A DNA stretch of 64,000 nt from Phocaeicola massiliensis B84634 = Timone 84634 = DSM 17679 = JCM 13223 (lineage in GTDB: Bacteria > Bacteroidota > Bacteroidia > Bacteroidales > Bacteroidaceae), in assembly GCF_000382445.1 (NCBI RefSeq), contig NZ_KB905472.1, positions 2,404,602 to 2,468,601 of the forward strand, given 5' to 3'. The notes below the pieces were generated by a model, which was not told where the DNA came from, did no database searches, and saw only the letters and a list, made by a program, of their open reading frames with translations. Every line of letters starts with the position of its first letter. The stretch's first letter is position 1. Shown piece by piece: positions 33,233 through 44,961 of this stretch. Both the position numbers and the translations under genes were made by a program.

Positions 33233-34693
33233 TCAAAGTAATTTCTTTATTTCCTCCCTCATTTGCCTGATGGCCGTGGATTGCACCTTCGGCTCTTTCT
33301 CCATTACCATCCTTGCGGCCTGTTCCAGTTTTTGCCGTTGATAAAACCCCGGTTCCGCATATAGCTTTGCCAACAGAAAATAAGGATAGATTCTGCCCGG
33401 CAGCCGATGGGTGGAACGAATCAGCCAATATTCCGCCTCTGCATAATTACCCGCCTCCTGCTCGTTCTTGCCTATTATGTTCAGTATCATCGGGTCGCCG
33501 CTCACCTTCAACGCCTCCTTCATAACCACATTCGATTCCTCATTTCTGTGCAGTTTGTGCAGGGCATGACCGTATTCAAACAGATAGCGGGCATTCCATT
33601 TCATGTCTTCGTATATCTCCGCATAGACTTCCGCCGCCTGTTCATAAGCCCCCGAACGGTAAAACATCTGTTTCCGGTGCCATGCCGACGAAGCCGTCTC
33701 ACGCACCTCCTTCCACCGATACACCTGGTAACACCCATAGCCCGCCGACAACAATAAGAACACGGTTCCCGCCATGCAAACCAATGGGCGTCGGGAGGAA
33801 AGGGTCTTTATTGCGCACCCTGTTACCAGCAATGCCAGGGCAACGACAAACAGAAGGAACTGGAACGGATAGGAAGAAAAGGAGAACACGGCCAAAGACA
33901 GCAGTGCACCGCACAGCCCGTACTCCTTCTGCCTGTGCCCGGCATAACCGCTTCCGCCCACCACCAGCAACGCCATCAGGAGCACGGGAACTCCCCATGC
34001 CATCGCCACCTGAAGATATTCATTGAACACATATTCGGGTGACCCCGCCACCCGTTCCTCGGTTTCCGTGTAGTTGCCCGCCGAGAAATAATCTTCCTGC
34101 GCCTGCCCATAGGCACCGGGGACGCCGTCCCATCCGTATCCGCGCCACGGTTGTCCGGCTATGGCGTGCACGGACACCTTCCACATCAGCAGCCTTCCGT
34201 CTGCCGAGTCCTTCTTCATCAGGTAAACACCGGCAAGTATCCCTCCTGCGAGCAATATCAGCAGAATTGTTCCCGCTTTCGTCCGTCTCGGGTGACAACG
34301 GATGTAGGCGTGAATCTCCTTCCGGTAATGCATATATGCGATGTATGCCGACGAGACCGCCCCGGCCATCCATGCCGAGCGGCTCATTCCGGCCGGCAAC
34401 ACACAAATAAGGAGTAACAGCACGGATAAGGCTACATAATAGGCCGTCGTTTTCTTTTCCTTCCTGCGCTTCAGCCATTCATACAGACAGACCGGAAGCG
34501 TCATGGCAAGGAAACCGGAGTAAGGCCCCGGATTGTAGAAAGAGCCGGTAAGGGCATAGAGCGAGTGGTTGGAGGCGGTAAAGCCATATACCTGTGCAAG
34601 CCCCCATACCGCTTCTACCGCACCGGCAAGGATGAAGAGCCAGGTGATAAATAGACAAATCCCACTTGCCATTATTTTATTTATATGTTTCAT
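33233..34693 (-). CDS. O-antigen ligase/Wzy-like membrane protein with C-terminal TPR
   Basis: A 486-residue polytopic membrane protein. Start MKHINK is chosen because its ATG overlaps the lepB stop (ATGA). The TM-rich first 340 residues include GSFYNPGPYSGFLA, MSRSAWMA and GYGWDGVPGAYGQAQEDYF, matching the large periplasmic loop of the Wzy_C/O-antigen ligase fold. The final 130 residues are helical TPR-like repeats (YRSGAYEQAAEVYAEIYED). The family joins glycans, but here, next to a signal peptidase and transglutaminase-like lipoprotein, the acceptor may be something else. The DNA is clearly GC-richer than its neighbours. Confidence 0.75.
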   Translation of the reverse strand: MKHINKIMASGICLFITWLFILAGAVEAVWGLAQVYGFTASNHSLYALTGSFYNPGPYSGFLAMTLPVCLYEWLKRRKEKKTTAYYVALSVLLLLICVLPAGMSRSAWMAGAVSSAYIAYMHYRKEIHAYIRCHPRRTKAGTILLILLAGGILAGVYLMKKDSADGRLLMWKVSVHAIAGQPWRGYGWDGVPGAYGQAQEDYFSAGNYTETEERVAGSPEYVFNEYLQVAMAWGVPVLLMALLVVGGSGYAGHRQKEYGLCGALLSLAVFSFSSYPFQFLLFVVALALLVTGCAIKTLSSRRPLVCMAGTVFLLLSAGYGCYQVYRWKEVRETASSAWHRKQMFYRSGAYEQAAEVYAEIYEDMKWNARYLFEYGHALHKLHRNEESNVVMKEALKVSGDPMILNIIGKNEQEAGNYAEAEYWLIRSTHRLPGRIYPYFLLAKLYAEPGFYQRQKLEQAARMVMEKEPKVQSTAIRQMREEIKKLL

Positions 34694-35574
34694 TTTATTC
34701 CTTTCCACACCCTGTCCCAACGGATATGTCCGTCGGCGGGATCTTCCGATTTCCATATTCTTGTTGCCTTTCCCACTATGTAGCTTTCGGGCAGCAGTCC
34801 CCAATACCGCGAATCGCGGGAGTTTTCCATGTTGTCGCCCGATACGAAGTAATAGTTCTCCCTAAACCGGTATTCCCTTATCAGGCTGTCGCCCAAGTAA
34901 ACAAGTTTATCCCTCAATGAAAGTTTCTTTTTTTGTTCGTACCTTATGATATGTTGATAAAATAATATTGAGGTGCTATCCAATGATACCACCTGCCCTT
35001 CTGCCGGGACAGGCAGGGGACCGAATTCCTTTATCGTCCATCCCAACCGTTTGCTCCACGGAAAACTCTCCATGACCACTCCCCGTAAATTGTTTTCCGT
35101 CAGGCCGGAGATGCGTCTTTGGGCGGCTATATTTCCCAATTCTTCCTCTGTCCCACGTATCCGATAGAATCCGTTCCTTATTTCCAGCGTATCTCCCGGC
35201 AGGGCGATACAGCGTTTTACATAATACAGCATGACATCCATCGCCAGGGAGTCTTGCTTGGCAGGATAAGGGAAATTGAAGACCAGCACATCATTGCGCT
35301 TAACCTTTCCGACTCCCGGCAGCCGGTGAATCTTCACCTCCTTGTCTTCCAATGCATCCCAGATATTGAAGATGCGGGCTCCCATTATCCATTTGTTCAC
35401 CAATATGCGGTCGCCTGCCTGCAGGGTGGGAGCCATTGAATCAGACGGGATGGTAAAAGTCGTGAAACAGGTTGTTTGTAATACCAGCCATCCTATTATC
35501 AATATGCATATATAGAAAGCGACCGACAGCAAGCAGTCCGTTATTTTTTTCAGCCTTTTCACCTTTCCTACCAT
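34690..35574 (-). CDS. lepB: Type I signal peptidase
   Basis: A 294-residue inner-membrane protease. One N-terminal TM (about 14-34) precedes the catalytic Ser in FTIPSDSMAPTLQAGD, the general-base Lys in YYVKRCIALPGD, and the conserved SGDNMENSRDSRYWG box. It cleaves Sec signal peptides on the outer face of the membrane. It overlaps the transglutaminase-like gene by 7 bp upstream and the ligase-like gene by 4 bp downstream. As an accessory copy in this setting it may be dedicated to local exported peptides; that is inference. The main LepB is probably elsewhere. Confidence 0.9.
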   Translation of the reverse strand: MVGKVKRLKKITDCLLSVAFYICILIIGWLVLQTTCFTTFTIPSDSMAPTLQAGDRILVNKWIMGARIFNIWDALEDKEVKIHRLPGVGKVKRNDVLVFNFPYPAKQDSLAMDVMLYYVKRCIALPGDTLEIRNGFYRIRGTEEELGNIAAQRRISGLTENNLRGVVMESFPWSKRLGWTIKEFGPLPVPAEGQVVSLDSTSILFYQHIIRYEQKKKLSLRDKLVYLGDSLIREYRFRENYYFVSGDNMENSRDSRYWGLLPESYIVGKATRIWKSEDPADGHIRWDRVWKGIK

Positions 35575-37502
35575 TTGTTTAAGAATATTTGTTGCCCGTT
35601 TTGCATATAGAACACCTGTTCCTCCTTGCCGGCAGATAGGTTATGCAGCCAAAGCAGCGCGTTTTTGGGAACATTGTTGTAAACCAACCGGGGTTCCGTT
35701 GCCGTTTTCCTGCCTAAAGACACCCAGCCGTCAGGTCCGTTTTGGTAGAACAGTTCATATTCATGTCCCATACTGATAAAATTCTCATCATTGCGTGGCA
35801 CATAAACTATCTTTTTTATCCATTCATCTTTGCCGAGGTCTAAAGTTACATAGCCTCCTTTTTCATCTGAAAGGAAATAGGTCAGATAGTTTCCGTCACA
35901 AATATTCTCTTTTACTTCTTTCTCATTTCCTTTACACGGCTCACTTCCGTTTATAATCTTAAAAGGCAGATTTACCGTGTCCTCTTCTGAACGAAATAAC
36001 ATTAGCTCTGCAATGCGTGCAGGTTTATCTGCAGCTGCTTGATATCGCACATACCTGTATTTTTTTTGAGGATGGCATATCACTTGATTATAATTCACTC
36101 TCGGTGTGTCAGCAACCATATAGAGTAACTCACTCTGTCGAAAATCCAAAGAATTTGAAACATCCAAGTGGCTTCCTATGATTTCACTGATATGGAAACG
36201 CGTCCATTTTCGTAGCGGATATTTTCGGAATAATTCAACGGTTTCTACTTCTTTCTCAGGCTGGAAATATTTTAATCCTTTATCTGTCAGCCAAAAAGGA
36301 AATCCTATTGTATGAAACAGACTTCCATTATGATTAGAAGCCAAAGGTACATAAATGACACCAGGCTCTATATTTTTCATATTGGCTTTACCATTTTGGT
36401 GTAACGCCATATCTATAGCCTTCCAGCCCGGAAAAGAAAAGACTCCCAAATAGGCATATTGTCCACATTCAGTCTCATCTATTTCTACTTCCACACTGTT
36501 TTCGCCAAAATATTCACCGGTGACATCCTTTATGTAGGGAGACTTTAAGACAGCGGGTACCTCCGGCTTGTCCATTATTCCCGTTATATCCTTTTTCTGC
36601 TTGCCAAAACATTGTCTGTATATTTTGCCTTTTAAACGTTTGTCATCATATCCTTGAGTAACCTTTCCCTCATCATATTCAAAAGGGATTATTCCGGTCC
36701 CATCCTTTATGACATTCCAGGAATGGCCGCCTTGGGCTTCGGGAGCACTTATAATGAAATCCGTGGCAACAGGTATGCCTACCGAACGGAGGACATATAC
36801 AGACAAGTCACAACTCTCCCGACAATATCCGACACAGTTCTTTTGCAAAAACAGGGCTCCCAGATGAGGCAGGCTTAATTCATCAGAATATACATAGCCG
36901 CTTTCTCGTTTTACAAACCTGATTAACGAGTCTGCTGCTACCATCATATCATTGCCTTTATATAAAGAATCAAGTACAGCCGAATATTTTTGATAAAAAA
37001 CCTTTCGCCAGTTTTCCAACGGCTCGTCCCCTATGCGATAAGGCAATATCCATTCACAGAACTCGTCAAATGAAAGAGAGTGCCGCCACGGTCTCTTCTG
37101 CCAGGCAGCAAAGGCCAAGTCTATATTTTCAATTAAATACTCAGCCTTTATAACGTGGCAGTCATACACCTTGGGCGTGCTCTTGTAGGAGAACTTACTC
37201 CATTTGTCTTGCAAATCACGAGGAAAATGTTTTTTATGGAATATGACGGATTGTATTTTTCTCAAACTGTCCAGACCGGAACTTTTTGCATACGAATAAT
37301 ATCCCGGCATATTCTTTATGAGAAAACATGCAGCATCATATTTAGGACCACTATCTTTATAATGTTCCAGTACTTTCTCCAGCTCTATTCGGTTCTTGCC
37401 TGCGGCATTCAGGGAATACTTTAAATCCTTTTCCCGGCAGCACGAATAAATGCTCAACAATATCATTAAATAGAAATATATTTTTATATTAAAATGTAAC
37501 AT
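35568..37502 (-). CDS. Transglutaminase-like lipoprotein with discoidin-like tail
   Basis: A 644-residue lipoprotein (lipobox IYSC, Cys21). The core (about 200-280) matches the transglutaminase/cysteine protease fold: GYCRESCDLS with Cys227 set 15 residues before the G of GIPV, GGHSWNVI with His260, and a Glu275 in IPFEY where Asp is usual. Three Cys cluster at 223, 227 and 231. After an intermediate beta domain (about 330-430), the C-terminal 150 residues resemble a discoidin/F5-8 fold (YVTLDLGKDEWIKKIVYVP). It overlaps lepB by 7 bp. Peptidase or crosslinking roles are both possible. Confidence 0.75.
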   Translation of the reverse strand: MLHFNIKIYFYLMILLSIYSCCREKDLKYSLNAAGKNRIELEKVLEHYKDSGPKYDAACFLIKNMPGYYSYAKSSGLDSLRKIQSVIFHKKHFPRDLQDKWSKFSYKSTPKVYDCHVIKAEYLIENIDLAFAAWQKRPWRHSLSFDEFCEWILPYRIGDEPLENWRKVFYQKYSAVLDSLYKGNDMMVAADSLIRFVKRESGYVYSDELSLPHLGALFLQKNCVGYCRESCDLSVYVLRSVGIPVATDFIISAPEAQGGHSWNVIKDGTGIIPFEYDEGKVTQGYDDKRLKGKIYRQCFGKQKKDITGIMDKPEVPAVLKSPYIKDVTGEYFGENSVEVEIDETECGQYAYLGVFSFPGWKAIDMALHQNGKANMKNIEPGVIYVPLASNHNGSLFHTIGFPFWLTDKGLKYFQPEKEVETVELFRKYPLRKWTRFHISEIIGSHLDVSNSLDFRQSELLYMVADTPRVNYNQVICHPQKKYRYVRYQAAADKPARIAELMLFRSEEDTVNLPFKIINGSEPCKGNEKEVKENICDGNYLTYFLSDEKGGYVTLDLGKDEWIKKIVYVPRNDENFISMGHEYELFYQNGPDGWVSLGRKTATEPRLVYNNVPKNALLWLHNLSAGKEEQVFYMQNGQQIFLNKW

Positions 37503-37527
37503 ATTTAAAACTAATTATTGAAGATTA

Positions 37528-37553
37528 TCTAATCATACTATTGTTTGATTAGA
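37528..37553. repeat. Inverted repeat upstream of the transglutaminase-like gene
   Basis: TCTAATCA and TGATTAGA, perfect 8-bp arms with a 10-nt centre, 26 bp before the start at 37502. Next to it on the minus strand is TACTTTTC, one base from a -7 box. It may be an operator for the downstream three-gene unit. Confidence 0.4.
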
Positions 37554-37612
37554 AAAGTACGATGTGAGTTTTGGAGTAAGTTATAGCTATTTTTGCATAC
37601 TACATTTATATC

Positions 37613-38074
37613 TTATTTAGTATTTTCTTCTATTAAATTATTTAGTCCAACAAGATCTGGAGCCTGAAATTCAATATGAGTTATTAATCCCTGATTTAAA
37701 TGAATAATAGAAGGATAAATAAACTTCTCATAAAAAAAGGGAGGAGTGAATTTATTCAAAGAATCAATGAATACATTTGGACTATAAAAGATGCTATCTC
37801 CTATTTTTTGTTTCAAAATTTTTTTTGAAACTATTTTAGTTAAAATGAATTTAACAGAATCTAATTCTGAATAGTACATTTTTAGAAAACCTTCGCTTTC
37901 ACTTATACATCCAGCACATCCCTGATTGGGTATAATTACAATTGCTTTAAATGAGCACATAGTATTTTTAAAGTTCTCAGATAATGTATTCTGCATAAAA
38001 TCTTTATAATTATCACTACCGCATGATATTAACAAAATGGGAATAACCAACAAAATTATTAGATTCCTTTTCAT
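37613..38074 (-). CDS. Thioredoxin-like CxxC lipoprotein
   Basis: A 153-residue lipoprotein with lipobox ILISC (Cys18). It carries IIPNQGCAGCISESEGF, a CxxC at the place of a thioredoxin-like active site following a beta strand, and later FIYPSIIHLNQG with a possible cis-Pro. The size is small for a full thioredoxin fold but the order is right. Its start overlaps the propeller gene stop by 4 bp (ATGA). It probably handles thiols in the periplasm or on the cell surface; the partner may be the Cys-rich peptide nearby (inference). The DNA is very AT-rich. Confidence 0.65.
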   Translation of the reverse strand: MKRNLIILLVIPILLISCGSDNYKDFMQNTLSENFKNTMCSFKAIVIIPNQGCAGCISESEGFLKMYYSELDSVKFILTKIVSKKILKQKIGDSIFYSPNVFIDSLNKFTPPFFYEKFIYPSIIHLNQGLITHIEFQAPDLVGLNNLIEENTK

Positions 38075-39225
38075 ATCTTTTTTAGTTTAAAAATGCCAAA
38101 TTTAATTTCATCTTCATTATCATTATGTTCTCTAAGTAATAGTCCTTCTTCTGTTACAAGAAAAGCATTTGATGATAATCTGTATTTGAAATCAACTAAT
38201 GTTTCTCCTATTCTATTCATATTTTTATCAAAAATAATAATGGACAAGGGTTTTTCCCATGGTTTTCTTTTGATTTGGGGATTAATCCATGGATGTTTAA
38301 CAAATCTATAATACACATTACGATATTTGTCATATACAATTGTAGAGTAAAAGTAAGATTCCAAATAGTGTAAAATACGTTTTTCTTTTGGCATCGGGAA
38401 GGCACTAGGGTGGTCTATGGATTTTATGACATCCGCATATTTACTTCCTCCAGGTTTAGATTCTGTTTTATTTAAATCTGTTAAGTATATGTTATGGTCA
38501 TTAGGAAAACTCAGTATAAATCTTTTGATAGAATCGTTATAACACCAAAACAGTTCTCTATAATAAACTTCACCCCAATTGCCTCGTCTGTAAGACTCTG
38601 GATAACCAAGTTTTAGATTAGAACTTTTTGTTTTCATATCATAGATAATTGATAAAGGTAATTTTATGCTATCTTCTCGGATAAATTCTCCATGAATATA
38701 TCCTGATATATATAATTTATCATTAATTAAATAAAGAGGTCTTCCTGTTCCCAGCCTCATTGTTGGACGATAAATATCAGATGGAACATTTGCTAGTAAA
38801 TCATATGTTTCTTTTATATTGCCATCTCTGTTAAGGAGAAATATTTTATCCACATACATAGAATAAAAATAAATAGAATCTAAAGTTTTAATATGATATC
38901 CTGATGCATATGGATAAACTCCATTGGGTCCTTCTTTTTCTAAATGAATAATTTGATAATTTTCTGGTTTATGATAATTATATAGATAAATAGAATTATT
39001 GTATTCATTATAAAATGTGAAAAGGATAGAGTCGGAATGAGGTTTGTGGTATATTTGCATACACTCATTTAAGGGTTGAGATTCCGCATCTAATGGGAAG
39101 CTAATACTATCTATAAGTGTTAGTTTGTAGGTTTCATGAAATTCCTTATTTGTGTTGATGTTTTCCACAACACTGTTGCATGCAGACAAGGTAATAATAA
39201 TAATGTAACAAATAATATTTCTCAT
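38071..39225 (-). CDS. 6-bladed beta-propeller lipoprotein (TolB-like)
   Basis: A 384-residue lipoprotein, lipobox LSAC (Cys16). Repeated beta motifs with aromatic and DxxG-like turns (SIYLYNYHKPENYQIIHLEKE, NRDGNIKETYDLLANVP, ILSFPNDHNIYLTDLN, IIFDKNMNRIGETLVDF) point to the 6-bladed propeller family common in Bacteroidota. Such proteins often sit beside NVEALA-type peptides; their binding partner is unknown. It follows the Cys-rich peptide gene after a hairpin, and is coupled to the CxxC lipoprotein gene. A second propeller lipoprotein lies at 43813-44853. Confidence 0.75.
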   Translation of the reverse strand: MRNIICYIIIITLSACNSVVENINTNKEFHETYKLTLIDSISFPLDAESQPLNECMQIYHKPHSDSILFTFYNEYNNSIYLYNYHKPENYQIIHLEKEGPNGVYPYASGYHIKTLDSIYFYSMYVDKIFLLNRDGNIKETYDLLANVPSDIYRPTMRLGTGRPLYLINDKLYISGYIHGEFIREDSIKLPLSIIYDMKTKSSNLKLGYPESYRRGNWGEVYYRELFWCYNDSIKRFILSFPNDHNIYLTDLNKTESKPGGSKYADVIKSIDHPSAFPMPKEKRILHYLESYFYSTIVYDKYRNVYYRFVKHPWINPQIKRKPWEKPLSIIIFDKNMNRIGETLVDFKYRLSSNAFLVTEEGLLLREHNDNEDEIKFGIFKLKKI

Positions 39226-39241
39226 TTTTTTTAATTTAGAA

Positions 39242-39264
39242 AGAGAGCGGCAATACCGCTCTCT
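39242..39264 (-). terminator. Intercistronic hairpin after the Cys-rich peptide gene
   Basis: Perfect 9-bp stem AGAGAGCGG/CCGCTCTCT with a 5-nt loop, between the peptide stop and the propeller start. It has only a short T run (CTCTTTCTAAATT), so partial termination or mRNA end protection is more likely than full termination. Confidence 0.6.
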
Positions 39265-39281
39265 AATTTAAACACTAATGA

Positions 39282-39524
39282 TTAACGATAACAATCATGC
39301 CAAAAAGTAGATTGATCGCATCTTGTAACTCCATCATTTTCAACACAATCACCATTGTTCTTGCTCGGTATGTTTTCACACGCGGCATTGGCAGAAGTCA
39401 TAGACTCCAAATCGGTTATAGACAGACATCCTTTGTTCGCTAACACTGTCTGTATATTTGTTATACAAACATAAGCGAAAGCTAGTGCAGCTGGCACTTT
39501 GAAAAATAAACTTCTTTTTTTCAT
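39282..39524 (-). CDS. Exported Cys-rich peptide with NVEALA-like motif
   Basis: An 80-residue peptide. A basic start and hydrophobic core (about 8-29) form a signal sequence; cleavage is likely near VLAN-KG. The segment SITDLESMTSANA (35-47) echoes the NVEALA motif ([N/D]-[I/L]-E-[A/S]-[L/M]-[A/T]). The rest is hydrophilic with Cys33, Cys49, Cys60, Cys69 and Cys78 spread through it. It is directly downstream of a radical SAM/SPASM gene (34-bp gap), the arrangement of a peptide natural product and its maturase, but the Sec-type signal is unusual for that. Function unknown. Confidence 0.7.
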   Translation of the reverse strand: MKKRSLFFKVPAALAFAYVCITNIQTVLANKGCLSITDLESMTSANAACENIPSKNNGDCVENDGVTRCDQSTFWHDCYR

Positions 39525-39558
39525 CGTTCTTGTTTTTTAATTAATAATATATCAATAA

Positions 39559-40572
39559 TTATTGACTTGTGCGCTTGTGTGCAAGGCAACCTCCGGTACA
39601 ATAAGTATCAAAGAACTGACAATCTATACATTTATTCTTTAAATTGAATATTTTTTTGTTCAGATTTGCTATCTTTAATAAATTATTTAGCCTTATAAAT
39701 GATATAGTTTTATCGTTTATGAATATAGGAGTAATTACCTCTTGAAATTGATTGCAATGCAATAAATTGAATTTTGAATCAACTAATCCAAAATCAGTGC
39801 CTCGGCATGTAGCTTTGTAATAACTTAAATTGTATTTGTTCATTAAATTAATAGATTCTTCTTCCCAAAAGCATAAGGGAATTGTATGATCAAATGATAG
39901 ATGGTTAGGGTATTTACTCAATATAAAAGAGATAATTTCCCTAAATTTTCGATTAATATCTTCTTTCTTTATGAAAATTTGCTCAATACAATTTAAAGTA
40001 ATTTGAAAATAGTACTGTTGTATTCTTTTTTTTGATAATTCTTGTTGCGTATGTTGTATCTCATTTTTTAGTTTTTGTATATCTGTATTTCCATCAATAA
40101 CGATTTCAAAGATTCTAGCGAAATTTGATGAAGGAAGATACTTATTAGAATCAAACTGTCTGTTGATAAACAAGAAATTATATATTATCGCATCTGTATT
40201 TCTTGGAGTTATTTTAGTTATTTCTGCATTCAAACCATTGGTAAATAGTGCTACAGAATCGAATTTTTGCTGAGATAAATTATATAATGTTAGAAAATCA
40301 GGATGAACTGTTGGTTCACCTCCCATTATCTTTAGATTTTTAATGCCATTGCTTGCAAAGTAATTAAATAACATTTCAGCCTTAGCTGTATCCATATGTC
40401 TATCTTCTCTAATTCCTTTATTAAAACAATGATTGCAGTTTGCATTACATGATTCTGTTAAATATATACGTATAGAATTAATTAAACCATTATTTTGATT
40501 CACGGTTTGTAACTTCTCTTTTAATATTTTGAAGTCGTCAAATGACTTGATTATATTTTTAATTAATCTCAT
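39559..40572 (-). CDS. Radical SAM/SPASM protein, candidate peptide maturase
   Basis: A 337-residue radical SAM enzyme. The SAM cluster motif is CNANCNHC (Cys42, Cys46, Cys49), followed by the MGGEPTVHPDF segment (GGEP, 84-87). A SPASM-like C-terminus is present: ATCRGTDFGLVDSKFNLLHC and then Cys315, Cys318, Cys325 and Cys329 (CIDCQFFDTYCTGGC), which would bind auxiliary Fe-S clusters. This class commonly modifies ribosomal peptides (thioether, C-C links, epimers). There is no obvious N-terminal RRE domain. It lies between the DUF1573 lipoprotein gene (6 bp upstream) and the Cys-rich peptide gene. Substrate assignment is inference. Confidence 0.82.
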   Translation of the reverse strand: MRLIKNIIKSFDDFKILKEKLQTVNQNNGLINSIRIYLTESCNANCNHCFNKGIREDRHMDTAKAEMLFNYFASNGIKNLKIMGGEPTVHPDFLTLYNLSQQKFDSVALFTNGLNAEITKITPRNTDAIIYNFLFINRQFDSNKYLPSSNFARIFEIVIDGNTDIQKLKNEIQHTQQELSKKRIQQYYFQITLNCIEQIFIKKEDINRKFREIISFILSKYPNHLSFDHTIPLCFWEEESINLMNKYNLSYYKATCRGTDFGLVDSKFNLLHCNQFQEVITPIFINDKTISFIRLNNLLKIANLNKKIFNLKNKCIDCQFFDTYCTGGCLAHKRTSQ

Positions 40573-40578
40573 AGCGAA

Positions 40579-40974
40579 TTATTTTTTAATTACTGTACCT
40601 TGTATTCTAAATAAAATAGGAGACTGCTTTGAATTACAAGTTATCTTTATATTTTTATTAAAATATCCTATTTCAAAACGTCTTATTTTTAGCCTTATTT
40701 TCGTTTCTTTATTAGGGCTTATTGGTTGCTTCTCCCATGAAGCAACAGTACAACCGCAAGACGATTCGATGTTATAAATTATCAAAGGTTCATTTCCTGC
40801 ATTTTTCAGGTTAATAAAAGTATCTTTGGAAGCCCCTAGATGCATTTCTTCTATTTGAATTATAGAGTCTAAATAATCAACATAGGTTCTTCTATCCTTC
40901 AAGCCATTTGTCTTATTTTGGGGAACGCATGCATGAATGATTAGCATTAATATGACATATAATAGTTGCTTCAT
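40579..40974 (-). CDS. DUF1573 lipoprotein
   Basis: A 131-residue lipoprotein with lipobox IHAC (Cys16) and one DUF1573 immunoglobulin-like domain: SSCGCTVASWEKQPISPN, KIRLKIRRFEIGYFNKNI and ITCNSKQSPILFRIQG. The CGC motif is the family hallmark. Such domains are frequent next to thioredoxin-like proteins in Bacteroidota; their role is unclear. It ends 6 bp before the radical SAM gene, so they are probably translated from one mRNA. The larger neighbour at 41049-41912 has the same domain at its C-terminus. Confidence 0.82.
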   Translation of the reverse strand: MKQLLYVILMLIIHACVPQNKTNGLKDRRTYVDYLDSIIQIEEMHLGASKDTFINLKNAGNEPLIIYNIESSCGCTVASWEKQPISPNKETKIRLKIRRFEIGYFNKNIKITCNSKQSPILFRIQGTVIKK

Positions 40975-41048
40975 AACAATGTGTTAATAGTTTGCTTTTT
41001 AGATTTAGCTAATTAGACCGTAATATTGAATATATACCTTATCATTAT

Positions 41049-41912
41049 TTATTTTGCATTTCCTGCTATCATTAACCGAAGCGGGGATGCCTTTGTGTTG
41101 CAATACACGGTTATCATCTTATTGAAATGACCTTTTTCTTCTGCCTCATACGTCACTGTCAGTTCCAATGGCGCGCCGGGACGGACAGGTTCCTTGCTGT
41201 AACTCACCTTGGTGCAGCCGCAAGATGTAGTGACATCCTGAATGACCAGCAGATTGTTGCCTTCATTGGTCAATACAAACTTGTATTCCTGCTTTTCCGA
41301 TTGTGGGAAAGTCCCGAAATCCATATTGGCCGTATTGACGGAAACGTCTGTCATGGCAACTGACGAAGAAGGCATTTTGCCATTGGTCAATCTCTGCAGA
41401 TAGAGCTCTTTCACCTTCGGGTTATGAACCGGGTTGCCTATCGCTATCACTTTATTTTCCCGGTTTAATAAAAAAGATTGAAATGTCATTTCACCGGGAA
41501 AACGGTTTAATGCATTAAAATCGTCCTTTTCATCGAAACAAACCGGATAAGTGAAGGCATCCCTCCGGGTAATGTAACGCAACTCTTTTACATCCTTGGG
41601 GTGGAAATAGAACACAAAGGGCACTTTCCCCTGAGCCAATGAATCTACTTCGTGCATGAATTCCTTCCAACGAGGTAATTGCAACTTGCAACTGGTGCAA
41701 CCTACAGAGTCTATATAAGTAATTATCTTATACTCAGCATCTGCGAAAGAAAAATCAACCGTGTCTTTCCCTTGAATGGTGAAAACTGAATGGGAAGGAA
41801 AGGAAATCTCTTTCCCATCCCATTCCCTCACCAAACGAGCGATTTTCTCTTTCGCTGATTCCTTGCAAGAACATAGTAAACAGAGAAAAAACAGTAAATA
41901 AATGTGTTTCAT
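41049..41912 (-). CDS. Thioredoxin-like lipoprotein with C-terminal DUF1573 domain
   Basis: A 287-residue lipoprotein, lipobox LCSC (Cys16). Domain one (about 35-185) is thioredoxin-like: IITYIDSVGCTSCKLQLPRW with CxxC, VPFVFYFHPKDV and SFLLNRENKVIAIGNP. Domain two (about 195-287) is DUF1573 with TTSCGCTKVSYSKEPVRPG. So one protein fuses a redox domain and the domain found alone in the neighbour. It starts 3 bp after the NVEALA-peptide gene. A truncated copy of its N-terminus lies at 19891-20076. Confidence 0.85.
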   Translation of the reverse strand: MKHIYLLFFLCLLCSCKESAKEKIARLVREWDGKEISFPSHSVFTIQGKDTVDFSFADAEYKIITYIDSVGCTSCKLQLPRWKEFMHEVDSLAQGKVPFVFYFHPKDVKELRYITRRDAFTYPVCFDEKDDFNALNRFPGEMTFQSFLLNRENKVIAIGNPVHNPKVKELYLQRLTNGKMPSSSVAMTDVSVNTANMDFGTFPQSEKQEYKFVLTNEGNNLLVIQDVTTSCGCTKVSYSKEPVRPGAPLELTVTYEAEEKGHFNKMITVYCNTKASPLRLMIAGNAK

Positions 41913-41915
41913 GTG

Positions 41916-42140
41916 CTATTCTAAACCATAAAATCTGATTACTGCTTCTACTTTGATACCAATAGGGCAATCTACTGTTCCTTCTCCTATGCATTTTATA
42001 CCATTTTCCTGTTCTCCATTTGCCAATGCTTCTATATTATCTAATAGTAAATCATTAGTATTATTATTAGAATAGGAAGAACCTATAAAACTCATTACTG
42101 TTGCTACAACAATAAATGAAAAAATCATTTTCTTTTTCAT
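41916..42140 (-). CDS. NVEALA-type exported peptide
   Basis: A 74-residue peptide: signal-like N-terminus (MKKKMIFSFIVVATVMSFIG), Asn-rich spacer, then LLLDNIEALANGEQENG, which matches the NVEALA motif of a Bacteroidota small-protein family. The tail holds Cys50 and Cys58 (KCIGEGTVDCPIG). It is the first gene of the minus-strand cluster and its stop lies 3 bp before the redox lipoprotein start, so the pair is coupled. Start ATG has a GATAGAAAGT stretch before it. Family function is not known. Confidence 0.8.
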   Translation of the reverse strand: MKKKMIFSFIVVATVMSFIGSSYSNNNTNDLLLDNIEALANGEQENGIKCIGEGTVDCPIGIKVEAVIRFYGLE

Positions 42141-42164
42141 ACTTTCTATCTTATTAGTTAGAGG

Positions 42165-42172
42165 TAAAATTA
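42165..42172 (-). promoter_or_regulatory. Possible -7 box of the peptide cluster promoter
   Basis: TAATTTTA on the minus strand, one base off TAnnTTTG, 24 nt before the NVEALA-peptide start. A weak TTTA lies 18 bp upstream. The phased hexamer array starts just beyond, where an activator would bind. Confidence 0.35.
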
Positions 42173-42204
42173 GGTTTTTATTTTTAAATTTAAAGCATAG
42201 AATA

Positions 42205-42265
42205 CCTCACATTTACCTTACGAAAGCCTTATATTTATCTTGCCGAAACCTTATGGAAACCTCAC
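42205..42265. promoter_or_regulatory. Six phased CCTYAY hexamers, candidate operator array
   Basis: CCTCAC 42205, CCTTAC 42216, CCTTAT 42227, TCTTGC 42238 (degenerate), CCTTAT 42249, CCTCAC 42260: each exactly 11 bp from the next, so on one DNA face. Direct repeats with 11-bp period are the binding pattern of OmpR/PhoB-type winged-helix proteins, and the divergent gene at 42361 encodes one. It lies between the two divergent promoters. Confidence 0.75.
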
Positions 42266-42341
42266 CGATGCTATGAATAGATATATTACATCTACAATCA
42301 TCTCTTTTTTATTATGTTTTTATCCATATTTTTATTTTTGT

Positions 42342-42349
42342 TATCTTTG
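42342..42349 (+). promoter_or_regulatory. Putative -7 box of the winged-helix regulator gene
   Basis: TATCTTTG matches TAnnTTTG, only 11 nt before the ATG at 42361. If used, the mRNA leader would be very short or absent. Confidence 0.5.
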
Positions 42350-42360
42350 CAGAAAAAAGT

Positions 42361-43479
42361 ATGGCTGCAAGATTCAAAAGTACAATTGGATTAATTATTC
42401 TAATCGTGATTGGAATAATTGGCATTTTCTATTTTTTAGTTCCGTCTGCAGAAGAGGATATCCACATGTTGGCTGAACGCGTTTTGCAAGAAACTATAAT
42501 AGAGGATTATCATGTCAGAAGCAATACGAAATCAATCTATTCTCGACCAGGAGGAAGGAAGATTAAAAATTATCAAATAGAGACAGAAAAAGGAATAGAG
42601 ACTTTTTCTTTTAAAGATAGTATAGATGAACATAGGGCTAATCAATTAGTGACCCAATACCTCTTGGCGGAGTACTCTCCTATAAATCCGGATACGTTTA
42701 TGGCTATCTTTAATGAAAAGATGAAAAAGAATGGCATAACGGATTCAATGGGAATTATTTATCGATATAAGGGACAGACCCAGTATAGTAATAATGATTC
42801 TCTTTCTCCCCGAACGGCATATTGCACAACGATACAATTTCTGGATGCAAGAGAAACTGTCAGTGTGCAGGCATGGGTGAATTACAATATTTGGACAATA
42901 ATAAAATATATACCCCTATTGATTATATTCTATGTAGTTTGTGTATTAGGATTAGGGGCCTTATTAATACTCATATATACCTACTATAAGAACAAGAAAT
43001 TTAATGCAAAAGATAATTTTATTGCTGCCGAAGTTAAAGCGTCGGAGAGTGAAGGAGAAGCGGCAGAAGGGAATATTCGATTGGAAGATATAATTTTGGA
43101 TACGAATAAGACAAAAGCATATATGGGCTCAAAAGAGTTGGATATTTCCAAGCAAGCTTTTCAACTGTTACTGCTTTTTCAGAAAGGAACTGAACATTTT
43201 GTTTCTAGGGACGAAATAAAAAAAGGACTGTGGACAAATGAGTACGAGACATTGGGCGAAATGAATTTGGATAGAAGAGTTGACTCAAGTATTAATAGGT
43301 TAAGGAAAGTATTACAAGATTATCCGCAATATAAAATAAAAAGAATAAGAGGTGCCGGCTATCAATTGGTTGTCAATTCCAATCTATGTAAAAACGGTTC
43401 CGTTGGTCAAGTTGACCATTATAAGATTATTGTTGAGAAAATTTTGAATAGGCTTAGAAACTGCTTCAAATGTTTGTAG
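42361..43479 (+). CDS. Membrane-anchored winged-helix transcriptional regulator
   Basis: A 372-residue protein with TM1 (about 9-27), a periplasmic domain of about 150 residues, TM2 (about 178-209), then a cytoplasmic OmpR/PhoB-type winged helix (about 238-338: ISKQAFQLLLLFQKG, SSINRLRKVLQDYPQYKIKR, IRGAGYQLVV). The order (sensor outside, DNA-binding domain at the C-terminus inside) resembles ToxR/CadC reversed in topology and needs no kinase. It is divergent from the peptide cluster, with phased repeats between. The last 34 residues (NSNLCKNG to FKCL) extend beyond the usual domain end and may come from a rearrangement at the 3' end. Confidence 0.8.
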   Translation: MAARFKSTIGLIILIVIGIIGIFYFLVPSAEEDIHMLAERVLQETIIEDYHVRSNTKSIYSRPGGRKIKNYQIETEKGIETFSFKDSIDEHRANQLVTQYLLAEYSPINPDTFMAIFNEKMKKNGITDSMGIIYRYKGQTQYSNNDSLSPRTAYCTTIQFLDARETVSVQAWVNYNIWTIIKYIPLLIIFYVVCVLGLGALLILIYTYYKNKKFNAKDNFIAAEVKASESEGEAAEGNIRLEDIILDTNKTKAYMGSKELDISKQAFQLLLLFQKGTEHFVSRDEIKKGLWTNEYETLGEMNLDRRVDSSINRLRKVLQDYPQYKIKRIRGAGYQLVVNSNLCKNGSVGQVDHYKIIVEKILNRLRNCFKCL

Positions 43480-43662
43480 CGTGTGTTCCCATACAAACAT
43501 CTTATTTAAACGATGGGTAGCCATCGACTTTATATAAGCATCCGGCTTCTTTGCTTTGAAATAATACCAAGCGAAGAAACGGTGGCCGGTTTCCAATGGT
43601 ATATAACTCAAGGAGTCAACCTCCTTTTGACTAAAGTTGATATCGAGTTTTCTATTTTATGA

Positions 43663-43812
43663 AAATACAATGTGTATTTTATCGGATGCTTACCACACAT
43701 CAAGCACATCCGTGAAGCTTTAAGAAATTCTCCTTACGACATTGCGACAGTAAGAGGCAAGGGTTTTAAACTGTTCTTAAAACCCATCGACTCCAAAGCA
43801 ACCCAACCATAG
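43663..43812 (+). pseudogene. Remnant of a second winged-helix regulator C-terminus
   Basis: An open frame of 49 codons without its own start, ending at TAG 43810-43812. It reads LPHIKHIREALRNSPYDIAT and then VRGKGFKLFLKP, the recognition helix and wing of an OmpR-type output domain. It follows the intact regulator gene in the same direction. The 43480-43662 stretch between shows no convincing gene; a minus-strand frame (43384-43611) overlaps the regulator end and is unassigned. Confidence 0.6.
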
Positions 43813-44853
43813 CTAATCAAATATATACTTCACTATCTGAGTATCCGTATTTACATCCGTTGCCCATAAACAATGGCCGGCTTCGTCTACATAGATACCC
43901 GTAACCGGACGGTCCAGCATGTATTCCTTACGCAGCTTTCCATCAAAGTCAAACACCCGAAGCTGTTTTGCACCCTGCTTATATTCCTTTTCCTTCATGA
44001 TATCACTAAACTTGCGTCCATCATAAATGGCATAAATATAATGCTCTGTCACTTGAACATCATAATAACACATCCGTCCGGCCGGAATGCCATATCCTTC
44101 TGAAGTGACATGAAACTCCGGTTCACCATCTTCTCCCTTATAGTTGATGTGTCGGCCGTTCTCCATATTATAAATATCAAGCACATCTCCCAATTGAGTT
44201 ACTGTCACCAAAAGTTTCTTATCCGGGCTAAACGAAATAAAGCTACGCCAGCCTTGTGCCACAGCAGGTGCGCTTTCTTTCAATTGTTTCTCGTCAGTTA
44301 TTGGTATACAGTCGGACTTATGCAATAAGTTCCCCGACATGTCTGCCCAACTAAAGCGGTTTTCTCCCGAATAATCGGGAATAACAAAGGAATCCGCACC
44401 CGATAAATCAAAGTCTAAAGGACGCATGAACGCCTTGTCCAACGAAATGTTTTCCTCCAGTTTCGGTTCTTGTCCCGGTGCAATGCCGCCATATCGAAAC
44501 AAACGATTCTTTGAGCCATCCAACACCCATGCTGTATTATCTCCTCCCCAACGAATATTTTCAGCCGAAATCATCTCCTCAGGACCCTCACCCCGTTTAC
44601 CGAAAGATGAAATATACTTAAAGCCGGGATATGTGAAAGCATGATAATAATAATCCACATTATGAAGGTCAAAGACTACGGCTTTATCTCCTTGTACCCT
44701 AATTCGGTATGCATATCGGAACAGGGCTGTATCAACAGGCATCTCTTCTCCCTTTAACTGAACATTCCGGACTTCCTTTTCTTCCTGTTTCTTTTGTCCG
44801 CCACATGAAGTTATTAACACTAGAGCGAACAACAATATAACCACATTCTTCAT
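43813..44853 (-). CDS. 6-bladed beta-propeller lipoprotein (second copy)
   Basis: A 346-residue lipoprotein starting MKNVVILLFALVLITSC (Cys17), preferred over a start eight codons upstream. Propeller-like repeats: KAVVFDLHNVDYYYHAF, YISSFGKRGEGPEEMIS, NTAWVLDGSKNRLFRY, LLVTVTQLGDVLDIYNM, LRVFDFDGKLRKEYML. The FGKRGEGPEE segment is typical of the Bacteroidota 6-bladed (TolB-like, DUF4221-related) families. It abuts the regulator remnant and has a 22-bp-period array about 110-215 bp upstream. It belongs to the same protein class as 38071-39225 but is not closely similar by eye. Function unknown. Confidence 0.78.
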   Translation of the reverse strand: MKNVVILLFALVLITSCGGQKKQEEKEVRNVQLKGEEMPVDTALFRYAYRIRVQGDKAVVFDLHNVDYYYHAFTYPGFKYISSFGKRGEGPEEMISAENIRWGGDNTAWVLDGSKNRLFRYGGIAPGQEPKLEENISLDKAFMRPLDFDLSGADSFVIPDYSGENRFSWADMSGNLLHKSDCIPITDEKQLKESAPAVAQGWRSFISFSPDKKLLVTVTQLGDVLDIYNMENGRHINYKGEDGEPEFHVTSEGYGIPAGRMCYYDVQVTEHYIYAIYDGRKFSDIMKEKEYKQGAKQLRVFDFDGKLRKEYMLDRPVTGIYVDEAGHCLWATDVNTDTQIVKYIFD

Positions 44854-44961
44854 TTCTTTATTTTTTAATTTTATCATCCCTGTACAATATCAAAGACAAC
44901 GACTTTGGTATTCTAAGCCTTTTCGTCCTTTAGATCAAGCCTTTCTGTAAGTTTGTTTATT

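What the first reader, a model, noticed from the sequence alone, without database searches (positions are those of the whole stretch)
33233..44853. Candidate exported-peptide system: NVEALA peptide, Cys-rich peptide, radical SAM/SPASM, redox lipoproteins, signal peptidase and a membrane-bound regulator
Seen: ten same-strand genes from 42140 down to 33233 with mostly tiny gaps or overlaps, containing two small signal-peptide-bearing peptides, a radical SAM/SPASM enzyme, two DUF1573 lipoproteins, two CxxC proteins, a propeller, a transglutaminase-like lipoprotein, a dedicated type I signal peptidase and a ligase-like membrane protein, with a divergent membrane-anchored winged-helix regulator. 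Known: SPASM enzymes often mature ribosomal peptides; NVEALA peptides are an uncharacterised Bacteroidota family. Inference: the peptides are modified in the cytoplasm, exported by Sec, cut by the local LepB, and handled by thiol-active lipoproteins.
Basis: partly seen in the sequence, partly recalled or inferred. Interest (0 to 1): 0.85.

Follow-up and report, generated by a model that had tools for sequence, protein, structure and literature searches.

The report
Swappable exported peptide–partner gene array
Gut Bacteroidaceae carry a chromosomal array of small exported peptides that share one leader but have very different cysteine-rich tails, each tail travelling with its own partner lipoprotein; the window holds an unusual version in which an extra enzyme probably modifies the peptide.

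Summary
Relatives change the meaning. The recurring machinery is a regulator, NVEALA peptide 1, Trx-DUF1573, Tgase-like lipoprotein, dedicated LepB and Wzy_C protein, at one site between an RND efflux operon and BF3164-folD-ffh. Inside sits variable cargo, usually NVEALA peptide plus beta-propeller lipoprotein pairs. Leaders are conserved up to N-V-E-A-L-A; the tail after it is hypervariable, most often with 4 Cys. In the own-genome array leader DNA is a median 95% identical among 10 copies and falls to about chance right after NVEALA. Tail and propeller travel together across species; leaders do not. The radical SAM gene is not core: 1 of 201 family and 2 of 61 genus genomes. It belongs to an AT-rich cassette absent from the same site of a record 97.8-99.5% identical in the flanks. 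Homologous Cys-tails with an NVEALA-type leader and no rSAM nearby occur in relatives, which supports a cut near A-x-A and shows the rSAM is optional. Most likely a polymorphic peptide/cognate-partner system for competition or self-recognition; that function is inferred.

The parts
33233..34696 (-). Wzy_C (O-antigen-ligase-like) membrane protein with TPR-like C-terminus (start uncertain); core machinery
   Evidence: Pfam Wzy_C 57.3 bits, TPR matches below cut-off; recurrent in relatives
34690..35574 (-). dedicated type I signal peptidase (LepB); probable NVEALA-leader peptidase
   Evidence: Peptidase_S26 110.4 bits; catalytic-type Ser (..SM) and Lys (..KR) kept in the non-housekeeping LepBs aligned; the two housekeeping LepBs form their own clade, support 0.967
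35568..37502 (-). lipoprotein with transglutaminase-like core and F5/8C-like domain; core machinery
   Evidence: both matches below cut-off; relatives in 64 of 201 family genomes, in 27 of 36 NVEALA genomes against 37 of 165 others
37613..38074 (-). CxxC lipoprotein; part of the cargo cassette
   Evidence: homologs behind Cys-peptide + DUF4221 in L056, L121, L128
38071..39225 (-). DUF4221 beta-propeller lipoprotein; cognate partner of the Cys-peptide
   Evidence: 104.4 bits; solved relative 3s9j; 392-aa homolog behind the Cys-peptide in L056
39282..39524 (-). 80-aa Cys-peptide precursor; predicted cut after ...TSANA, 33-aa tail with 4 Cys
   Evidence: aligned with five relatives
39559..40572 (-). 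radical SAM enzyme with SPASM-like cysteines; probable maturase of the Cys-peptide
   Evidence: Radical_SAM 42.1 bits; CX3CX2C invariant in 30 sequences; 45 family members, the window's included, in 5.8 billion proteins
40579..40974 (-). short DUF1573 lipoprotein; first gene of the cargo cassette
   Evidence: 78.7 bits; inside the unmatched stretch
41049..41912 (-). thioredoxin-like + DUF1573 lipoprotein; core machinery
   Evidence: 109.7 bits; relatives in 23 of 61 genus genomes
41916..42140 (-). NVEALA peptide 1, tail C-x3-G-x3-C type; candidate signal peptide
   Evidence: PF14055 42.7 bits; 15 of 15 peptides directly before Trx-DUF1573 have this tail pattern, 11 of 15 with CP
42361..43479 (+). 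membrane-bound one-component regulator: TM, extracytoplasmic domain, TM, OmpR-type winged helix
   Evidence: Trans_reg_C 41.4 bits; alignment of 15; models pLDDT 76.8 and 85.1; TM segments judged by eye
43813..44877 (-). BF3164/TolB_like propeller lipoprotein; probable partner of peptide 1
   Evidence: 218 bits; lies between peptide 1 and Trx-DUF1573 in L116 and L128
37451..41045 (-). swapped-in cassette (DUF1573, rSAM, Cys-peptide, DUF4221, CxxC), mostly under 30% GC
   Evidence: composition; no match in L137 or contig C5 although both sides match

Best explanation
The locus is a polymorphic exported-peptide system. Each precursor has an N-terminal hydrophobic export segment and a conserved leader ending in N-V-E-A-L-A. 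A dedicated signal peptidase I of the locus cuts after the A-x-A, about 24 residues past the hydrophobic stretch, and frees a tail of about 40 residues that folds with 1-3 disulfides under the Trx-DUF1573 lipoprotein (cut and folding inferred). Each tail works with the propeller lipoprotein encoded directly behind it; tail and propeller move and diverge as one cassette while leaders within a genome are homogenised by recombination (sequence evidence). Peptide 1, with a conserved tail pattern, together with BF3164 and the membrane-bound winged-helix regulator, forms the signalling arm that controls the array (inferred). The most likely role is competition or self/non-self recognition between close relatives, the propeller being immunity or receptor (inferred). 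In the window the variable slot holds a foreign cassette whose peptide has another leader and a radical SAM enzyme that probably modifies the tail before export (inferred from adjacency and co-occurrence).
For: Of 108 NVEALA-type ORFs in 44 own-genome and relative loci, 79 are followed on the same strand by a propeller; of 356 other genes, 15 are. 76 peptides: entropy 0.1-0.9 bit over NVEALA, 3.7-4.1 bits from the sixth residue after it; Cys 0.7% before, 8.8% after; 4 Cys in 38, 2 in 14, 5 in 10, 6 in 6; ALA at -3..-1 in 64 of 76. Leader DNA median 95% identical among 10 own-genome copies, next 90 bases 32%, next 310 bases 29%. Tail-propeller Pearson 0.555 between genomes against 0.028 +- 0.040 with partners permuted within genomes, 0 of 1000 as high; 8 of 14 propeller-homologous cross-genome pairs have homologous tails against 58 of 2656 overall. 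One tail family (ECPGG..EC.R..VGNTVH.FY) recurs in three genomes; in two of its three comparisons tail (0.63, 0.69) and propeller (0.44, 0.55) are more alike than the leaders (0.33, 0.34), in the third the leaders are the most alike (0.74). Tails homologous to the window's Cys-peptide follow an NVEALA-type leader, with no rSAM on the mapped stretch, in L121 and L128, both before DUF4221 and CxxC. rSAM, Cys-peptide, DUF4221, CxxC and LepB together in L056. Cassette absent at the same site of L137. Plasmid NVEALA + lipoprotein pairs.
Against: No activity, cut or modification is shown. Rank correlation of tail and propeller similarity is only 0.04: the signal comes from few recognisable homologs, and adjacent genes are co-inherited anyway, so this is no proof of binding. 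Of 11 cross-genome pairs with tail similarity over 0.5, two (against a 9-residue tail) have unrelated propellers, 0.05 and 0.02. A propeller of 330-400 residues is large for an immunity protein. All 77 partners have a lipobox-like Cys by a simple rule, but 71 of 77 have 0-1 acidic residues at +2 to +6, so they lack what I recall as the Bacteroides surface-export signal and look periplasmic; no exporter across the outer membrane is known. 9 of 36 NVEALA genomes have no Tgase match; 2 of 15 NVEALA loci lack LepB or Tgase and 2 lack Trx. SPase I usually cuts close to the hydrophobic segment (recalled).
Confidence: 0.5

Rival explanations
1. Signalling or self-recognition only: the peptides are diversified pheromones and the propellers their periplasmic receptors, feeding the membrane-bound regulator; no killing.
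Against: One or two regulators for many unrelated tails; arrays of unrelated tails in one genome fit weapons or decoys better; the structural match is within the noise range stated by the tool.
Confidence: 0.25
2. Surface or matrix peptides: Tgase and the Wzy_C protein cross-link or glycosylate the tails on an envelope structure, variation being driven by phage or host immunity.
For: Tgase-like and Wzy_C genes recur in the loci: LepB, Tgase and Wzy in 13 of the 15 NVEALA loci.
Against: Tails are poor in the recalled Bacteroides O-glycosylation motif D[ST][AILMVT]: 1 found against 6.5 +- 2.4 in shuffles; partners lack the recalled surface-export signal.
Confidence: 0.15
3. One reading: a radical SAM RiPP pathway of which all ten genes are parts.
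For: Contiguity; rSAM, Cys-peptide, DUF4221, CxxC and LepB are together in L056.
Against: rSAM in 1 of 201, 2 of 61 and 1 of 395 genomes while NVEALA is in 36 of 201; cassette missing at the same site in L137; same tail family without rSAM in L121 and L128.
Confidence: 0.07

Closest known systems
NVEALA family (Pfam PF14055), annotated in public records as NVEALA domain-containing protein
   Same: Peptide 1 is a member (42.7 bits); plasmid records use the name.
   Different: The name says nothing of the leader/tail split, the partner propeller or the locus; no paper of the held library contains the word.
Polymorphic toxin-immunity systems such as CDI (VENN motif; recalled)
   Same: Conserved trafficking part, short motif, hypervariable C-terminus, partner gene directly downstream, extra partners without a peptide, exchange by recombination.
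   Different: Small Cys-rich peptides, signal-peptidase route, large propeller lipoprotein as partner; no toxicity shown.
Radical SAM RiPP pathways of Bacteroidales (PMC10352776; outline with abstract and matched passages seen)
   Same: Leader + core precursor beside an rSAM enzyme.
   Different: Its abstract reports GG-motif precursors with PCAT transporters in 9 clusters studied closely; here a signal-peptide-like leader, LepB and no PCAT among the ten genes. The terms signal peptid, DUF1573 and propeller occur 0 times in its main text.
B. thetaiotaomicron BT0662-BT0680 region (PMC10434189, one passage seen)
   Same: Its table lists an O-antigen ligase family protein (BT0662), a 6-bladed propeller (BT0664) and an RND efflux set (BT0678-80), like the neighbours here.
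   Different: Table rows only; not compared by sequence here.

Membership tests
NVEALA PF14055 | score over the curated cut-off | tested here: met
   41916-42140: 42.7 bits, cut-off 27
NVEALA PF14055 (Cys-peptide 39282-39524) | score over the curated cut-off | tested here: not met
   no PF14055 match at E<=0.1; its tail is homologous to those of the NVEALA-type-led L121 and L128 peptides
Radical SAM superfamily | CX3CX2C and domain score | tested here: met
   42.1 bits, cut-off 29.5; motif invariant in 30 sequences
SPASM subfamily | SPASM auxiliary-cluster domain | tested here: inconclusive
   cysteine pattern conserved; no SPASM family in the Pfam list at E<=0.1
Type I signal peptidase | domain score and Ser-Lys dyad | tested here: met
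   110.4 bits; Ser and Lys aligned with signal peptidase 1t7d and with the array LepBs
RiPP | leader/core precursor with linked modifying enzyme | tested here: met
   Cys-peptide beside rSAM in the window and L056; P0050/P0002 and P0051/P0003 have equal contig lengths, which suggests one contig each
RiPP | enzymatic modification of the core | not testable with these tools
   needs mass spectrometry
Polymorphic toxin-immunity | conserved N-part, variable C-part, partner gene downstream | tested here: met
Polymorphic toxin-immunity | toxicity neutralised by the cognate partner | not testable with these tools
   needs bench work
GG-leader/PCAT peptides | C39-peptidase ABC transporter in the locus | tested here: not met
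   none among the ten genes in Pfam; genes farther out were not scanned for it

The most novel reading that the evidence does not exclude
Gut Bacteroidaceae run an unrecognised peptide-diversification machine: one leader with a built-in LepB site, recombined in place onto an open-ended pool of disulfide-type tails each locked to its own beta-propeller lipoprotein, with leader replacement letting a radical SAM enzyme be plugged in as an optional maturase of an exported peptide.
Probability: 0.45. Interest if true: 0.88.

Novelty: new variant of a known kind. Interest (0 to 1): 0.74.

Why it matters
NVEALA peptides occur in 36 of 201 sampled genomes of the family, 28 over the curated cut-off, and no paper of the held library names them. 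If the reading is right, a class of secreted, diversified gut-bacterial peptides gets a cut site, a partner and a testable role, and many propeller lipoproteins of Bacteroidota get a ligand. The rSAM cassette would be an exported RiPP whose unmodified cousins exist as natural controls.
Full report
WHAT IS THERE. Ten same-strand genes lie at 33233-42140 with a divergent regulator at 42361-43479 and a BF3164-type lipoprotein at 43813-44877. The flanks are an efflux adaptor/RND operon below and folD/ffh-like genes above (RND, folD and ffh named by eye). GC is 25-35%, in most windows under 30%, between about 37.5 and 41 kb; 38-58% over Tgase, LepB and Wzy; 31-43% over Trx and peptide 1; 28-36% over the regulator. 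The only record found for the window's ffh in the plasmid collection, labelled Phocaeicola massiliensis, matches it at 95.1% and the flanks at 99.5% over 8.65 kb and 97.8% over 4.8 kb, so the window is from that species or a close relative.

THE RECURRING MACHINE. In 201 genomes of the family NVEALA was found in 36 (28 over the curated cut-off), the Tgase-like protein in 64 and the rSAM in 1. NVEALA and Tgase co-occur: 27 of 36 NVEALA genomes have Tgase against 37 of 165 others, Fisher p 4e-9. In the genus set of 61, BF3164 is in 21, the efflux adaptor in 32, Trx-DUF1573 relatives in 23. Of 65 mapped stretches 21 hold an efflux-adaptor relative; leaving out L019, which overlaps L018, 20 loci remain. 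NVEALA peptides are in 15 of the 20. LepB, Tgase and Wzy are all present, fragments counted, in 13 of those 15; L040 lacks LepB and L046 Tgase. Trx-DUF1573 is in 13 of the 15 and in L120 besides. The rSAM is in 1 of 20, the window. One contig, L118 (3,716 bases), has BF3164 about 110 bases from the efflux adaptor with nothing between: an empty site, though on a short contig whose start cuts BF3164. In G596, G638, G611, G080, G196, G140 and G154 adaptor and BF3164 stand 7-21 kb apart with Trx-DUF1573 between. So the system is an island at one favoured place.

THE CARGO. Between Trx-DUF1573 and the Tgase/LepB/Wzy end lie variable genes. In 44 own-genome and relative loci 108 NVEALA-type ORFs were found; the next gene is a propeller lipoprotein in 79, Trx-DUF1573 in 9, another NVEALA peptide in 10, BF3164 in 2, Tgase in 1, something else in 5, contig end in 2. 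For genes that are neither, a propeller follows in 15 of 356. Of 133 propellers with an upstream neighbour 33 follow another propeller: partners without a peptide. Propellers were called by similarity chains from DUF4221 and BF3164. Pfam on 46 of them, the window's included: DUF5128 29, TolB_like 25, DUF4934 19, DUF4221 7, overlapping. On plasmids of P. vulgatus and B. fragilis NVEALA peptides stand before a BF3164-family lipoprotein, a 6-bladed propeller or a 322-aa hypothetical protein; no Tgase, LepB or regulator was labelled in the fetched stretches, a Trx-like ORF lies at the edge of one. The pair may be the minimal mobile unit.

LEADER AND TAIL. In 76 non-redundant pairs the residues N-V-E-A-L-A have 0.1-0.9 bit of entropy; from the sixth residue after it, 3.7-4.1 bits. 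Cys rises from 0.7% to 8.8%; 4 Cys is the mode (38 of 76) and 58 of 76 tails have 2, 4 or 6. A-L-A ends the leader in 64 of 76. The best hydrophobic window ends a median 24 residues before that point, too far for an ordinary c-region (recalled rule), which would explain a dedicated peptidase. In the own genome (contig C5, 10 copies) the 129 leader bases are a median 95% identical; identity is 40% in the first 15 bases after the leader and 25-36% beyond. Leader similarity is 0.69 within and 0.36 between genomes, tail similarity 0.13 and 0.12. This is the pattern of recombination in the leader that swaps tail plus partner.

TAIL AND PROPELLER GO TOGETHER. Pearson correlation of tail and propeller similarity between genomes is 0.555; with partners permuted inside each genome 0.028 +- 0.040, never as high in 1000. 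Spearman is only 0.039: most pairs are unrelated and few homologs carry the signal. Of 14 cross-genome pairs with homologous propellers 8 have homologous tails (score over 0.3) against 58 of 2656 overall. Of 11 pairs with tail similarity over 0.5, two rest on a 9-residue tail and have unrelated propellers. Linkage of neighbours explains part of this; that linkage holds on the tail side and breaks on the leader side is the informative point.

THE WINDOW'S SPECIAL CASSETTE. Window 37451-41045 has no match in L137 or in contig C5, although Trx/peptide 1/regulator (97.8%), efflux/Wzy (99.5%), a Tgase fragment (98.7%, 458 bases) and a LepB piece (94.8%, 713 bases) match L137. At that site L137 carries two tandem units with nine peptide + lipoprotein pairs, eight of which I recognise from contig C5 by their tails. 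The cassette is DUF1573, rSAM, Cys-peptide, DUF4221, CxxC. The rSAM family has 45 members, the window's included, in 5.8 billion proteins. In L056, a Bacteroides MAG, the order is Wzy, Trx-DUF1573, rSAM, Cys-peptide, DUF4221, CxxC, LepB. L073 and L074 hold rSAM remnants before DUF4221; L073 also has the start of CxxC. Farther relatives sit with other rSAM genes and small ORFs, some PqqD-like (L062, L065, L067; my reading, no family search). In L121 and L128 the same tail type (..NDGNC or ..NNGDC..C....DC) follows an NVEALA-type leader (TNVESIA, ADIDALA), then DUF4221 and CxxC, with no rSAM on the mapped stretch. L121 is from genome G617, which has the rSAM version on contig C5 too (taken to be L056 from matching coordinates). 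Unlike leaders before one tail family put the border at A-x-A or close to it (ANA, AIA, GNA, SIA, ALA). The rSAM goes with the other leader, so leader recognition by the enzyme is likely (inferred). Kept in the four tails taken as rSAM-linked and not in the two others: N-x-P-x-K before N-N-G-D-C; a candidate for the modified stretch, on six sequences, two of which (P0050, P0051) are linked to an rSAM only by equal contig length.

REGULATION. All 15 peptides directly before Trx-DUF1573 in the 65 maps have the tail C-x3-G-x3-C, 11 of them with a following P. The regulator shows a hydrophobic segment, about 150 residues, a second hydrophobic segment and an OmpR-type winged helix. That peptide 1 is its ligand is inferred from place and conservation.

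MECHANISM, SHOWN AND INFERRED. Shown from sequence: gene content, favoured site, leader/tail modularity, tail-partner linkage, cargo exchange, intact LepB dyad. Inferred: cut by this LepB, disulfides, rSAM action, pheromone role, antagonism. I put the anatomy at about 0.9, the LepB cut at 0.7, rSAM modifying the Cys-peptide at 0.7, antagonism or self-recognition together at 0.6.

NOVELTY. The parts are known families. No held paper contains NVEALA, and in the search DUF4221, DUF4934 and DUF5128 had no occurrence in the three papers listed, which matched by DUF1573. Only open-licence papers were searchable.

Noticed in passing
window 43672-43812: Remnant of a second regulator: its C-terminal residues match the other regulator type seen in own-genome contig C5 (L011:6753-7745). 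Suggests deletion between tandem regulator units.
   Followed up: partly
own genome C5 and C7 (L011-L013): A second NVEALA/propeller array with transposase-like (IS66-type by eye) genes on small contigs that share duplicated stretches; its place in the genome is not resolved.
   Followed up: partly
L110:7464-12718 (own genome C4): Another Trx-like, LepB, Tgase-like triad beside a protein with a weak MG2-domain match, without NVEALA peptides labelled in the stretch: perhaps a related processing set with another client.
   Followed up: no
L137 (OY726023.1): Record labelled plasmid carries ffh, folD and the chromosomal flanks of the window; it is probably a chromosomal piece.
   Followed up: partly
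L062, L065, L067, L063, L064, L066: Distant relatives of the rSAM stand in clusters of two or three rSAM-like genes with small ORFs, some PqqD-like by eye, in MAGs labelled Bacteroidota, Kiritimatiellae and Elusimicrobiales.
   Followed up: no
L057, L058: Relatives of the rSAM at 44-45% identity in MAGs labelled Nanoarchaeota/Nanoarchaeia; transfer or binning error.
   Followed up: no
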